Shown here: piece after piece, positions 34,402 through 37,998 of the stretch
Layout: every line of letters begins with the position of its first letter
Numbering within the stretch: position 1 is the first letter of the stretch
Source of the DNA: a virus
Reading direction: 5' to 3' (one strand)
DNA: 37,998 nucleotides
IMG/VR virus record: IMGVR_UViG_3300006987_000003
Span: 1 to 37,998 of that record
The notes under the pieces: model-generated
Databases searched by the model: none
Told to the model about the DNA's origin: nothing
The model's input: only the letters and a program-made list of their open reading frames with translations
Program-made: the position numbers and the translations under genes

Positions 34402-34634
34402 TGGCTAGTGGTAATTTATGGCAGCTATTCAAGAACGTCACTGAGCAAGGGGCTAAGCAATTAGCGACTGTCATTGATAGGCAAGGCTCAAACTATACAG
34501 TAACGATGCAGGGCGGTGGCAACACGATTGTGCAATCAAACATGGCTTACGAGCTACAATCCAAAGTCTTTATCAGAGATGGGCAGATTGTAGCGCAAGC
34601 ACCTAATTTAACTTATACAGAGATTAGCGTATGA
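34401..34634 (+). CDS. Small tail protein of unknown role
   Basis: A 77-aa protein: MASGNLWQLFKNVTEQGAKQ then IDRQGSNYTVTMQGGGNTIVQ and beta-strands to the end (KVFIRDGQIVAQAPNLTYTEI). The layout suggests a small beta-barrel such as an OB-fold spike or hub accessory. It overlaps both neighbours (1 nt and 4 nt). Role inferred from position only. Confidence 0.6.
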   Translation: MASGNLWQLFKNVTEQGAKQLATVIDRQGSNYTVTMQGGGNTIVQSNMAYELQSKVFIRDGQIVAQAPNLTYTEISV

Positions 34635-35065
34635 CAGACATTAAAAAAGACGATAGCGTTAAAACTATCAAGGTAGCAGGGCAAGAGATTGTAATCAATC
34701 GCGTCAAAGTTAAAAACCTACACGAAGTAACGCGGGCATTTACGCCTTTTGTCGCTGAGTTTGAGCGCATTGTGAAAGCTAAAAAAGGTATGCCAGAGAG
34801 CGAATTAATGGCACTTATCGGTACGTTTACCGATGAAACGGTTATCTTAGCCTCAACACTGACAGACCAACCGCCAAGTTTTTATAGAGAGCTTGAGCCG
34901 CTTGAAATGTTACAGGTCATGCAGGAGGTAGTATCGCATAGCGGTGATTTTTTTATGCGTCAGATTTTCATACCCCTAAAACAGTTGGGGGCGCAACTGG
35001 CGTTACTTGGTACGACAGCTTATTACCATTCTACAAAATCGGAATCAGAGAATCTGACATCTTAG
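34631..35065 (+). CDS. Tail assembly chaperone, G-like
   Basis: A 144-aa protein: IKVAGQEIVINRVKVKNLHEVTRAFTPFV and EPLEMLQVMQEVVSHSGDFFMRQIF. The opening strand pattern, mostly helical body and place before the tape measure match tail chaperones of lambda gpG type. At residue 120 is a run of five G, where a -1 slip would enter a longer frame (next entry). Such chaperones bind the tape measure and help it fold. Here three other genes separate the two. Confidence 0.75.
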   Translation: MTDIKKDDSVKTIKVAGQEIVINRVKVKNLHEVTRAFTPFVAEFERIVKAKKGMPESELMALIGTFTDETVILASTLTDQPPSFYRELEPLEMLQVMQEVVSHSGDFFMRQIFIPLKQLGAQLALLGTTAYYHSTKSESENLTS

Positions 35066-35199
35066 ATATGGTGTTTGGCGAATGGTGGGGCTTATCTAAA
35101 GCACTGGCTAAAGATAAGCAGCAAAGTGTCAAAGATATGGCCATCGCTATGCGTATGTCGCAATTAGACACTAAAAACTGGAAAGAGTTTATGAAATAG
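34631..35199 (+). CDS. Frameshifted tail chaperone, GT-like (-1 at 34987-34991)
   Basis: At TTG GGG GCG (34985-34993) five consecutive G allow the tRNA on GGG to slip back one base and still pair. The -1 frame then reads 69 more codons, open from GGC (34990) to TAG (35199), with GATGVTWYDSLLPFYKIG, then ILDMVFGEWWGL and helical AKDKQQSVKDMAIAMRM. The combined product would be 189 aa. The downstream frame has no ribosome site of its own, so frameshifting is the likely route, as in lambda G/GT. Confidence 0.6.
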
Positions 35200-35256
35200 T
35201 AGCGTAACAACGGTTAATCGACTAAAATTGAGTGAATACTATTTTGGTGATGGGCT

Positions 35257-35835
35257 ATGAAAAAGCTATTGGCTGTGGGATTGGTGTTGGTGCTAAGTGG
35301 TTGCGGCGGTGGGTATGACAGTTTGCCGCCACAAGTAAGCAATGGGAATGGTGGGACAATCGGTGCTGGCAGCACATTTCCTACAGATAAAGGCAATTGG
35401 AAGTATGGCAACACAAGTGATGAGAACGGCTTATTTTCTTTAACCGCTAGAATAGATGCTACCAATACATATACGGTTCCGAAGTATCCAAATCTTGAGC
35501 AGCGATCATGGATTGAGTTAGAAAAGAGGAAGTCATTTGATGGTAGTATCTCAAAAAGATTTCTGATTTTTGCACCTGAGCAGGTTAAGTGTACGCCAGG
35601 TTGCAACATAAGAATTAAGTTTAATGGCAATACAGCGACTTATAGCTTTTTGCAGAGTAGCGAGGGCGTGTTAACTCCGTCAAGCAGTGAGGTGGCATCT
35701 GAGCTGTTTGACAAAACTACGCAATCTAATAGAGCTACTATTTATCTACCTATTGTGGGTTTAAGTAAAGAGTTTGGGTCTGAGTTTAATCTTGGGGGCT
35801 ATGATGCGACTAAAATGAAATTTATAAGCGAGTAA
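35257..35835 (+). CDS. Lipoprotein, possible superinfection exclusion protein
   Basis: A 192-aa secreted lipoprotein: MKKLLAVGLVLVLSGC is a signal peptide with lipobox LSGC, so Cys16 should be lipidated and the protein held in the envelope. The mature part begins GGGYDSLPP and has two more cysteines close together (VKCTPGC). It lies between the tail chaperone and the tape measure, a place where phages insert cargo genes expressed in the lysogen. A weak promoter (TTAATC, 35214, and TACTAT, 35237, 17 bp apart) precedes it. Exclusion of other phages is a guess from these features. Confidence 0.7.
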   Translation: MKKLLAVGLVLVLSGCGGGYDSLPPQVSNGNGGTIGAGSTFPTDKGNWKYGNTSDENGLFSLTARIDATNTYTVPKYPNLEQRSWIELEKRKSFDGSISKRFLIFAPEQVKCTPGCNIRIKFNGNTATYSFLQSSEGVLTPSSSEVASELFDKTTQSNRATIYLPIVGLSKEFGSEFNLGGYDATKMKFISE

Positions 35836-35839
35836 TGAT

Positions 35840-36544
35840 GTGGCTAAACTAATTAAGTGTTCCGATTGTCGTAAGAAAATAAGTGTAAATGCTAATACGT
35901 GCCCTAATTGTGGTGCGCCAGTTTTAGCCCAAAGAAGCAATAGCTTGGGCGTTAAGAAAGATAGTGCAAAATGGGGTTATATTTTTGGTGTATTTTTCAT
36001 ACTTATGAGTGTAAGTGCATTTGCAACCAGTTTTTTTGCAGGAGTTATGATTTTAATTGGTGGGGTTTTAGCACTGCCAGTTGCACAGCGTGCTTTAATT
36101 GTACGCAATATCACATCAACGAGCGCACCTATTATTATTGCTAGCGTTATATTGGTTATAATCGGAACACTTATTACGATTAATAAGAGCCAGAGTGATC
36201 GAGAGGATTTTATTAAGAATAACCCGGAAGCTTACGCTGCTGAGCAAGCAGAAATAGCTAAGCGAGATACAGAAAAACAAGCACAAGAAAGTCAGAAACA
36301 GGAAGGTAGAAAAACATCGGAATCAACATTGCTTACGCTATGCCAAATAAATGTAAAAAATAGTATGAAAGATCCTAGTTCTTTTGATATGAACTACAAC
36401 TCAAAAAGGTTTTCGTCTGCTGGGGATGGTTATACGATAAACTTTAGTTACACTGGTACAAACAGTTTCAATGCAACAATAACATCGGTAGCAACTTGTA
36501 ATTTTGATAAAGATGGTAGATTGCTTGGCATTAGCTCAAATTAA
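35840..36544 (+). CDS. Zinc-ribbon membrane protein
   Basis: A 234-aa protein. The N-terminal zinc ribbon is CX2C...CX2C (Cys7, 10, 21, 24; KCSDCRKK and TCPNCGAP). Then come hydrophobic segments near residues 45-80 (YIFGVFFILMSVSAFA and GVMILIGGVLALPVA) and 97-116 (IIIASVILVIIGTLITI), a charged coiled coil (AAEQAEIAKRDTEKQAQESQ), and an outer domain of strands with Cys (DPSSFDMNYNSK...SVATCNF). It starts with GTG. It follows the lipoprotein by 4 nt and ends in a strong terminator, so the two form a unit. I do not recognise a function. Confidence 0.7.
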   Translation: MAKLIKCSDCRKKISVNANTCPNCGAPVLAQRSNSLGVKKDSAKWGYIFGVFFILMSVSAFATSFFAGVMILIGGVLALPVAQRALIVRNITSTSAPIIIASVILVIIGTLITINKSQSDREDFIKNNPEAYAAEQAEIAKRDTEKQAQESQKQEGRKTSESTLLTLCQINVKNSMKDPSSFDMNYNSKRFSSAGDGYTINFSYTGTNSFNATITSVATCNFDKDGRLLGISSN

Positions 36545-36561
36545 TACAAAAACTATCAAAC

Positions 36562-36589
36562 AAAACCCACCATTTAATCGGTGGGTTTT
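36562..36589. terminator. Strong symmetric terminator after the cargo genes
   Basis: AAAACCCACC (36562-36571) pairs with GGTGGGTTTT (36580-36589) with loop ATTTAATC. A/T flanks on both sides mean it should work in either direction. Confidence 0.85.
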
Positions 36590-36613
36590 CGCTTGTAGAC
36601 TTTACAGTTACTG

Positions 36614-36635
36614 CACTCTGCAAATTTGCAGAGTG
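36614..36635. repeat. Perfect 22-bp palindrome
   Basis: CACTCTGCAAA is followed directly by its exact complement TTTGCAGAGTG. It lies 30 bp upstream of the next gene's ATG. No loop means it is more likely a protein-binding operator or dimer site than a hairpin terminator. Confidence 0.8.
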
Positions 36636-36664
36636 GTTAATTAAACATATTAGAGGGGGTAGTT

Positions 36665-36982
36665 ATGACAATCACACCTAAAAAATCACCACCAGACATT
36701 AACTATATTACACCTGACCAATTCCCTAATGATTATGATATTTGGGGTGATGAGGGCTTTGAGCGTATCAATAACCTTTTAGATAAAGCGGTGCATCTAG
36801 TTAGTAGAAAAGCTAAAAATGAAGTGATGCACTATGCTGGATTGTCAAAGAATAAAAGCAAGGACGGTAAAAAGCCAGTTGTCTTTATTGATTGCGATAG
36901 CTTGAATCGCTACCACATTGATGAGCGCCATATTAAAGCCGGCAAATTACCAAAACCCGATAGGGCTAGCGCTTTTAAATAA
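36665..36982 (+). CDS. Hypothetical protein before the tape measure
   Basis: A 105-aa soluble protein with AGAGGGGGT close upstream of its ATG, a strong ribosome site. It includes YITPDQFPNDYDIWGDEGFERINNLLDKAVHLVSRKAKN and a basic C-terminal half with VFIDCDSLNRYHIDERHIKAGKL. Flanked by terminators on both sides and a palindrome upstream, it looks like an independently controlled cargo gene. I do not recognise the family. Confidence 0.65.
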   Translation: MTITPKKSPPDINYITPDQFPNDYDIWGDEGFERINNLLDKAVHLVSRKAKNEVMHYAGLSKNKSKDGKKPVVFIDCDSLNRYHIDERHIKAGKLPKPDRASAFK

Positions 36983-37000
36983 ATAACGAACAACTTAACA

Positions 37001-37027
37001 AGCTCACTTTAATTAGTGGGCTTTTTT
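37001..37027 (+). terminator. Terminator just before the tape measure
   Basis: AGCTCACT (37001-37008) pairs with AGTGGGCT (37015-37022) with a TTAATT loop and a T-run, then CCAAAATTTG (37032-37041), as after the terminator at 16546. Confidence 0.75.
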
Positions 37028-37051
37028 ATGCCCAAAATTTGAGGTGAGACA

Positions 37052-37998
37052 ATGGCAGGTGATTTAGATTTTAGCGTACAGTTGCGGCTATTGAATGACC
37101 AGTTTAATAATGGCATCAATGAGGCGCGTGACAAGTTCACAGCATACGCGCAATCCGTACAGCGCAATGTGACACAGATGAACGCTGATACTGAGCGAGC
37201 CACAGCATCATTGGCAGGGCTTGGCAATGTGCGTCCTGATAGATTGACGGCTGAGCTGCGCGCAACGGCTGACCAGTTAAGACAGATGGGTGCAGGTGCT
37301 AACTTATCAGGTGAGCAAGTACAAAACGCTATGCGTACCGCCGCAGGTCAGGTGACGCGCTTAGGTACTGAGCTTAACGAGGCGAAGTTAGAAGCCGCAC
37401 GATTAGCGCAGACAGGTGCAAGCCCACGAGATTTGGAAGCAGCAGCGCAAAAGGTCAACCGTTTAGAGACTGAATTAAACGAGGCTCGCAGTGCCAGTGT
37501 TAGCCTTGCCAATGAGCTATCAGGTGCGATGAATCGTGCATCTAATACGGCAGATGGCGCACGCAATGCTATTTATCGCATTACAAACATTCGGGTGCCC
37601 GAAACGATACGCGGTGAGATTGACCAAATCAGCCGATCATTGGTAGATTTTCAACGCAATAGTGGTCGTCCTGCAGAAGAAATAGACCGAGTAACAAGAG
37701 CGGCACAAGAACAAATCAGACGGCTTGAGGCGGAATTGCGAGGGCTTGATGACACGCAAGATAGGGTTAATCAAGGCTCAAATAACTTAGGCGGCGGCGT
37801 TAATAAGCTGCGTGGTGCATTTGGTAGCTTACAAGGGCTATTAGCGGCGGCTGGACTTGGTATCGGTGTCGCTGAGATTATCGCAGTATCTGATGCTTTT
37901 ATTAACCTAGAGGCAAAAGTAAAGCTCGCTACTGGTGAAGGTGCAAACTTTGTAAACGGCTTTAATGGCGTCAAGCAGATTGCGGCCGATACATTTAG
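37052..37998 (+). CDS. Tape measure protein, N-terminal part
   Basis: An open frame runs from ATG 37052 to the window end (315 codons shown, no stop). MAGDLDFSVQLRLLNDQFNNGINEARDKFTAYAQ is a typical tape-measure beginning, followed by long alpha-helical repeats with heptads (LGTELNEAKLEAARLAQTGASPRDLEAAAQKVNRLETELNEA). After residue 250 comes a hydrophobic stretch GSLQGLLAAAGLGIGVAEIIAV, as in tape measures that insert in membranes. It sets tail length. GAGGTGAG precedes the ATG. The gene is truncated by the window edge. Confidence 0.9.
   Translation, partial: MAGDLDFSVQLRLLNDQFNNGINEARDKFTAYAQSVQRNVTQMNADTERATASLAGLGNVRPDRLTAELRATADQLRQMGAGANLSGEQVQNAMRTAAGQVTRLGTELNEAKLEAARLAQTGASPRDLEAAAQKVNRLETELNEARSASVSLANELSGAMNRASNTADGARNAIYRITNIRVPETIRGEIDQISRSLVDFQRNSGRPAEEIDRVTRAAQEQIRRLEAELRGLDDTQDRVNQGSNNLGGGVNKLRGAFGSLQGLLAAAGLGIGVAEIIAVSDAFINLEAKVKLATGEGANFVNGFNGVKQIAADTF

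What the first reader, a model, noticed from the sequence alone, without database searches (positions are those of the whole stretch)
35200..36982. Cargo island between the chaperone and tape measure
In most siphoviruses these genes are adjacent. Here a lipoprotein, a zinc-ribbon membrane protein and a small soluble protein intervene, with a candidate promoter, a strong symmetric terminator and a 22-bp palindrome. An envelope lipoprotein next to a membrane protein suggests a superinfection-exclusion or defence unit expressed in the lysogen. I know of no described system with this combination, so it may be new.
Basis: partly seen in the sequence, partly recalled or inferred. Interest (0 to 1): 0.65.

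Follow-up and report, generated by a model that had tools for sequence, protein, structure and literature searches.

The report
Prophage cargo slot encoding envelope proteins
Between two tail genes, this Psychrobacter virus carries a swappable cargo cassette, with its own promoter-like and terminator signals, that encodes a lipoprotein and a membrane protein which most likely help a resident virus keep rival viruses out of its host cell; this kind of slot is known, but these protein families are undescribed.

Summary
The island is real: between the tail-assembly chaperone and the tape-measure gene (TMP) lie a lipoprotein (L), a zinc-ribbon/TM protein with a two-cysteine C-terminal domain (Z) and a 105-aa protein. 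It is a moron slot, a known kind: HK97 keeps its exclusion moron gp15 in the same place. In 23 related Psychrobacter loci the interval is never empty; about seven gene families shuffle through it (L in 16) between a conserved promoter-like element and a terminator. The element travels with cargo: its six hits in 105 genomes precede L (four) or M (two), including copies outside this slot. Z's domain sits at the chaperone-TMP junction of other tail types, also on other membrane anchors, and in Psymv2 adjoins an Ltp-type exclusion gene. Best reading: envelope proteins made in the lysogen that probably block superinfecting DNA entry. Slot about 0.9; exclusion about 0.5, untested. No homology to gp15, Ltp or PADLOC models was found, and L has no significant PDB fold match. 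The 22-bp palindrome does not belong to the L/Z unit: 30 of 33 exact viral copies lie in KilA-N antirepressor genes or their fragments, unexplained.

The parts
34631..35065 (+). Tail assembly chaperone (5' boundary gene of the slot)
   Evidence: phrog_1442 E=1.3e-12; 75-98% identical in relatives
34948..35199 (+). -1 frameshift extension of the chaperone: slippery T-TTT-TTT at 34948-34954; frame open to the stop at 35197-35199 (not a separate 43-aa gene)
   Evidence: Same heptamer at the same phase and an open, conserved -1 frame in relatives
35200..35245 (+). Conserved promoter-like element (TACTAT/TATAAT at 35237-35242) at the 5' edge of the slot
   Evidence: 80.6% mean pairwise identity over 19 loci vs 65.4% at third codon positions of the adjacent frame; found upstream of L and M copies elsewhere
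35257..35835 (+). L: 192-aa lipoprotein, probably outer membrane (Gly after the lipobox Cys), conserved C-x-P-x-C pair
   Evidence: structure model pLDDT 82; in 16 of 23 related slots
35840..36544 (+). Z: 234-aa protein, N-terminal zinc ribbon, hydrophobic segment (about 3 TM), C-terminal two-cysteine (DPSSF-type) domain
   Evidence: PF13240 E=1.1e-5, phrog_32961 E=1.7e-17; domain alignments; hydropathy
36562..36589 (+). Symmetric terminator-like stem-loop after Z
   Evidence: 10-bp arms, 100% complementary; dG -15.9, z -4.1
36614..36635 (.). 22-bp perfect palindrome CACTCTGCAAATTTGCAGAGTG; not conserved in other slots with p105; identical to a segment of KilA-N genes
36665..36982 (+). p105: 105-aa protein without TM, unknown function, usually the last cassette before TMP
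   Evidence: phrog_29597 E=4.6e-12, unknown function; in 13 of 23 slots
37000..37030 (+). Terminator before TMP (3' boundary of the slot), kept in most relatives
   Evidence: dG -12.0, z -5.3; same hairpin, or another one, before TMP in the relatives compared
37052..37996 (+). Tape measure protein, N-terminal part (runs off the record)
   Evidence: phrog_12706 E=1.4e-18

Best explanation
The island is a moron slot of a temperate Psychrobacter siphovirus at the chaperone-TMP junction. A promoter-like element just after the chaperone would transcribe L and Z from the otherwise repressed prophage, and terminators would keep that transcript out of the TMP gene. L would be anchored in the outer membrane; Z in the inner membrane, with its zinc ribbon in the cytoplasm and its two-cysteine domain in the periplasm. 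The most likely function is superinfection exclusion: the envelope-anchored domains obstruct the route (receptor, TMP channel or inner-membrane entry) by which another long-tailed phage injects its DNA. Shown from sequence: slot, boundaries, shuffling, travelling element, anchors, conserved cysteines. Inferred: expression in the lysogen, topology, exclusion.
For: Slot always filled, cassettes swap, flanks conserved. L divergence is unrelated to chaperone divergence (Mantel r=-0.04; mean distance 0.39 vs 0.14). HK97 has chaperone - Gp15 moron - terminator - TMP, and gp15 blocks DNA injection (PMC10883804). The promoter-like element accompanies L or M at six places in 105 genomes, including copies without the chaperone. 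First-in-line cargo is nearly always envelope-targeted: L lipobox; Z, z, M, C with TM segments. Z's domain lies at the chaperone-TMP junction of another tail type, occurs as a lipoprotein, and adjoins an Ltp/phrog_15667 exclusion gene in Psymv2. CI-like and Q-like genes are present.
Against: No expression or challenge data. No homology of L or Z to gp15, Ltp or any PADLOC model. Lone chromosomal L and M copies fit a general host-fitness role as well. The -35 region of the element is weak and the consensus scan is not above chance. L occurs without Z and Z-type domains without L.
Confidence: 0.52

Rival explanations
1. Lysogenic-conversion morons for host fitness rather than phage exclusion: L and its partners change the envelope (stress tolerance, surface properties, grazing or complement resistance), in the manner of lambda Bor and Lom.
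For: L and M persist as stand-alone genes in Psychrobacter chromosomes next to housekeeping genes; envelope anchors.
Against: In viruses the genes keep returning to TMP neighbourhoods and Z's domain adjoins an exclusion gene in Psymv2; fast turnover fits an arms race.
Confidence: 0.27
2. Virion or tail-assembly genes: L, Z or p105 help build or modify the tail during the lytic cycle.
For: Position in the structural operon on the same strand; p105 is often the last gene before TMP.
Against: L is missing from 7 of 23 loci that keep chaperone and TMP; terminators separate the unit from TMP; lipid and TM anchors suit the host envelope.
Confidence: 0.08
3. Non-adaptive hitch-hiking cassettes: the junction tolerates insertions and the genes do nothing for phage or host.
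For: High turnover of content; low GC3 of Z (0.26 vs 0.43 for the genome) suggests recent foreign origin.
Against: Intact reading frames and invariant cysteines kept down to 43% identity; conserved promoter-like element; the slot is never empty.
Confidence: 0.07

Closest known systems
HK97 gp15 moron (superinfection exclusion)
   Same: Same slot between the frameshifted chaperone and TMP, followed by a terminator; membrane-anchored product; gp15 blocks DNA injection (PMC10883804)
   Different: gp15 is one 62-aa gene with one TM; here several larger genes; no sequence similarity
Ltp-type exclusion lipoproteins (TP-J34 Ltp, PF07553)
   Same: Lipid-anchored extracytoplasmic prophage protein; TP-J34 Ltp is expressed in lysogeny and targets TMP (PMC3952083); an Ltp gene adjoins a relative of Z's domain in Psymv2
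   Different: L and Z lack the Ltp repeat; TP-J34 ltp lies in the lysogeny module, not beside TMP (PMC3952083)
Psychrobacter phage vB_PmaS_Y8A
   Same: Nearest sequenced phage (82.6% DNA identity over 62% of the 5.7-kb query), same slot also filled
   Different: Its slot holds Arc-like, KilA-N, small genes and a LITAF-like protein, no L or Z; its authors report no exclusion genes (PMC10434257)
Psychrobacter phage Psymv2 gp37/gp38
   Same: gp37 carries Z's two-cysteine domain; gp38 beside it is an Ltp-type exclusion gene
   Different: Located between head closure and later tail genes, single TM anchor, no zinc ribbon, no L

Membership tests
Phage moron (HK97/HK022 sense) | Extra gene(s) inserted between conserved phage genes, variable among relatives | tested here: met
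   23 loci, differing cassettes, conserved flanks
Phage moron (HK97/HK022 sense) | Own promoter | tested here: inconclusive
   Conserved element that also precedes L and M outside this slot; no transcript data; consensus scan not above chance
Phage moron (HK97/HK022 sense) | Own terminator | tested here: met
   Stems at 36562-36589 and 37000-37023; terminator before TMP in relatives; predicted only
Phage moron (HK97/HK022 sense) | Different base composition | tested here: inconclusive
   GC3: Z 0.26, p105 0.35, L 0.39, genome 0.43: clear for Z only
Phage moron (HK97/HK022 sense) | Expressed in the prophage state | not testable with these tools
   No expression data
HK97 gp15 family | Sequence homology to gp15 | tested here: not met
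   blastp best E=0.095 over the TM of z; phmmer none
Ltp family (PF07553) | Ltp repeat domain | tested here: not met
   No PF07553 in L relatives, Z or p105, while Psymv2 gp38 scores E=3.6e-26
Ltp family (PF07553) | Lipid anchor | tested here: met
   Lipobox in L conserved in relatives
Superinfection exclusion protein (function) | Protects a lysogen from other phages | not testable with these tools
   Needs plating assays
Known defence systems (PADLOC-DB 2.0.0) | Match to a model | tested here: not met
   No match at E<=0.1 for L, Z, p105, M, C or the two Psymv2 proteins

The most novel reading that the evidence does not exclude
L plus an inner-membrane-anchored, two-cysteine periplasmic partner (Z, z or M) form an undescribed two-part envelope exclusion system of Moraxellaceae phages, in which an outer-membrane lipoprotein and an inner-membrane partner jointly block the TMP-dependent DNA channel. 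The two-cysteine domain would be a new exclusion domain swapped among lipid, single-TM and zinc-ribbon/TM anchors, and the units would move with their own promoter between phage slots and the chromosome.
Probability: 0.2. Interest if true: 0.65.

Novelty: new member of a known kind. Interest (0 to 1): 0.42.

Why it matters
If exclusion holds, Moraxellaceae phages carry at least two undescribed envelope protein families that shut out rivals, in the same place where HK97 keeps gp15. That would mark the chaperone-TMP junction as a recurrent exclusion locus worth mining. The promoter-like element and the two-cysteine domain are concrete search handles, and clean gene-removal tests are possible.

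Tried and rejected
(1) 'L-Z-105 is one fixed system': rejected, the genes occur apart. (2) Palindrome as a conserved operator of the island: not supported, absent upstream of p105 in the other loci compared; it matches KilA-N genes. (3) Palindrome as a repeated operator in this phage: only one copy in the window at up to 3 mismatches. (4) Folds: L has no significant PDB match (best E 0.28); six BFVD matches at E<=0.001, the named ones all uncharacterised. The Z model is weak (pTM 0.33), with only weak NTF2-like matches (best E 0.024); not used. (5) Z searched directly in viral contigs: none; the domain alignment found seven loci. (6) L in phage and plasmid records: none. (7) L profile against PDB sequences: nothing significant. 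(8) Literature search for the palindrome string: none. (9) Promoter from the sigma-70 consensus alone: not above chance. (10) A first attempt to hand in this report failed its schema.

Full report
CHECK OF THE OBSERVATION. The window is a whole 37,998-base IMG/VR record of a Psychrobacter-type siphovirus; the nearest isolate is phage vB_PmaS_Y8A. It has a CI-like repressor and a Q-like antiterminator, so a temperate life is likely, although I did not find an integrase among the proteins scanned. Between the tail assembly chaperone (phrog_1442) and the TMP (phrog_12706) lie a lipoprotein L, a zinc-ribbon/TM protein Z and a 105-aa protein. The symmetric stem at 36562-36589 and the palindrome at 36614-36635 are beyond chance. 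The sigma-70 scan is not. A second terminator sits at 37000-37023. The apparent 43-aa ORF 35068-35199 is the tail of a -1 frameshift product of the chaperone, with a slippery T-TTT-TTT kept at the same phase in relatives.

THE SLOT. Chaperone-based searches of viral contigs and of 105 Psychrobacter genomes, plus Y8A and the window, gave 23 distinct loci after I merged near-identical records by eye. The interval is never empty; the shortest is 0.66 kb. Counts from those tables: L in 16, p105 in 13, a small LITAF-like zinc protein C (PF10601) in 9, a 200-aa single-TM protein M in 3, Z or its short relative z in 3, Arc plus KilA-N in 2 (for Y8A from its annotation). Nineteen loci share a 46-nt element right after the chaperone, whichever cargo gene follows; it is more conserved than third codon positions of the adjacent frame (80.6% vs 65.4%). 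By inspection, a terminator hairpin precedes TMP in the junctions printed. L does not track the chaperone (Mantel r=-0.04; mean distance 0.39 vs 0.14; 12 loci), so cassettes reassort on a stable backbone. The HK97 record shows chaperone - Gp15 'moron product' - terminator - TMP: the site is a classic moron position.

A PROMOTER-LIKE ELEMENT THAT MOVES WITH THE CARGO. L also occurs outside this phage group: before TMPs of another type (L079, L081; phrog_28420) and without recognisable phage neighbours in chromosomes (L073-L078, L080). Copies L073, L074 and L079 carry the same upstream element although the chaperone is absent or different. A scan of 105 Psychrobacter genomes for its 26-nt core (up to 3 mismatches) gave six hits: upstream of L in G001, G063, G087 and G091, of M in the G010 slot, and of a lone M in G072. 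The reversed-pattern control gave two hits. In G087, L and M sit together outside any visible tail genes. This is the best evidence that the unit is autonomous. That the element is a promoter remains an inference; its -35 region is weak.

THE PROTEINS. L keeps its lipobox and a C-x-P-x-C pair down to 43% identity. Its model is confident over residues 28-177 of the mature form, with no significant PDB match and matches only to uncharacterised or unnamed viral proteins. Z has a zinc ribbon, a hydrophobic stretch long enough for three TM helices, and a C-terminal domain with two invariant cysteines. The same domain occurs behind a single N-terminal TM (z, Psymv2 gp37, Mcat17) and as a lipoprotein (L150-L152); the lipoprotein form places it outside the cytoplasm. 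It occupies the chaperone-TMP interval in this group, in a phrog_3336-type tail (L148, L163) and, judging from gene order only, in Moraxella phage Mcat17; elsewhere it lies at other structural junctions (L154, Psymv2, L162). In Psymv2 its immediate neighbour is a PF07553/phrog_15667 superinfection-exclusion gene, and an Ltp gene lies within about 1 kb of it in L149.

HOW IT PROBABLY WORKS. Shown: position, boundaries, shuffling, anchors, conserved cysteines, travelling element. Inferred by analogy with HK97 gp15 and TP-J34 Ltp (PMC10883804, PMC3952083): the proteins are made in the lysogen and obstruct DNA entry of superinfecting phages at the envelope. I put the moron-slot reading at about 0.9 and exclusion at about 0.5. 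A general host-fitness role is the main rival, because L and M persist in chromosomes. No homology links L or Z to gp15, Ltp or PADLOC models, so membership in those families is not claimed; 'works like gp15' is.

THE PALINDROME. It is not part of the L/Z unit. Thirty-three viral contigs hold the exact 20-bp core; by my count 30 lie in KilA-N genes or in truncated stretches with the same flanks, where it encodes (H/N)SANLQS; many are near-identical prophages. Other KilA-N genes have a different palindrome at the matching place, sometimes two in tandem: in seven of nine genes analysed none of 200 synonymous-codon shuffles reached the observed arm length, in one three did, and Y8A's copy is imperfect. 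Arc/KilA-N is itself one of the cargo families of this slot. The cause is unknown.

NOVELTY. A new member of a known kind: undescribed protein families in a known moron position. Interest is moderate.

Noticed in passing
window 36614-36635; L166:1498-1521; L190; L193; L028; L162: KilA-N antirepressor genes of Psychrobacter, Acinetobacter-like and other phages carry one or two 20-24-bp palindromes at a matching place in the coding sequence, with differing sequences and compensatory changes, beyond synonymous-codon shuffles in most genes tested. The window has the same palindrome in a non-coding position. Unexplained; operator or RNA hairpin are possibilities.
   Followed up: partly
34948-35199: Conserved programmed -1 frameshift (T-TTT-TTT) in the tail chaperone of this phage group; the Y8A record annotates the extension as a separate hypothetical gene.
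   Followed up: yes
L205:6623; L198:1167; L216:338: Exceptions to the KilA-N location of the palindrome: inside an ORF that looks like a portal protein (L205), and in stretches without a KilA-N gene (L198, beside chaperone-like and Arc-like genes; L216).
   Followed up: no
L074; L233: Outside the tail slot, L+M (G087) and M followed by a zinc-ribbon protein (G072, beside phage-like genes) sit behind the same promoter-like element.
   Followed up: partly
L026, L027, L083, L088: The best TMP match begins at query residue 97 about 2 kb downstream of the slot, with long reverse-strand ORFs between, suggesting a TMP with an enlarged, possibly repetitive N-terminal part.
   Followed up: no
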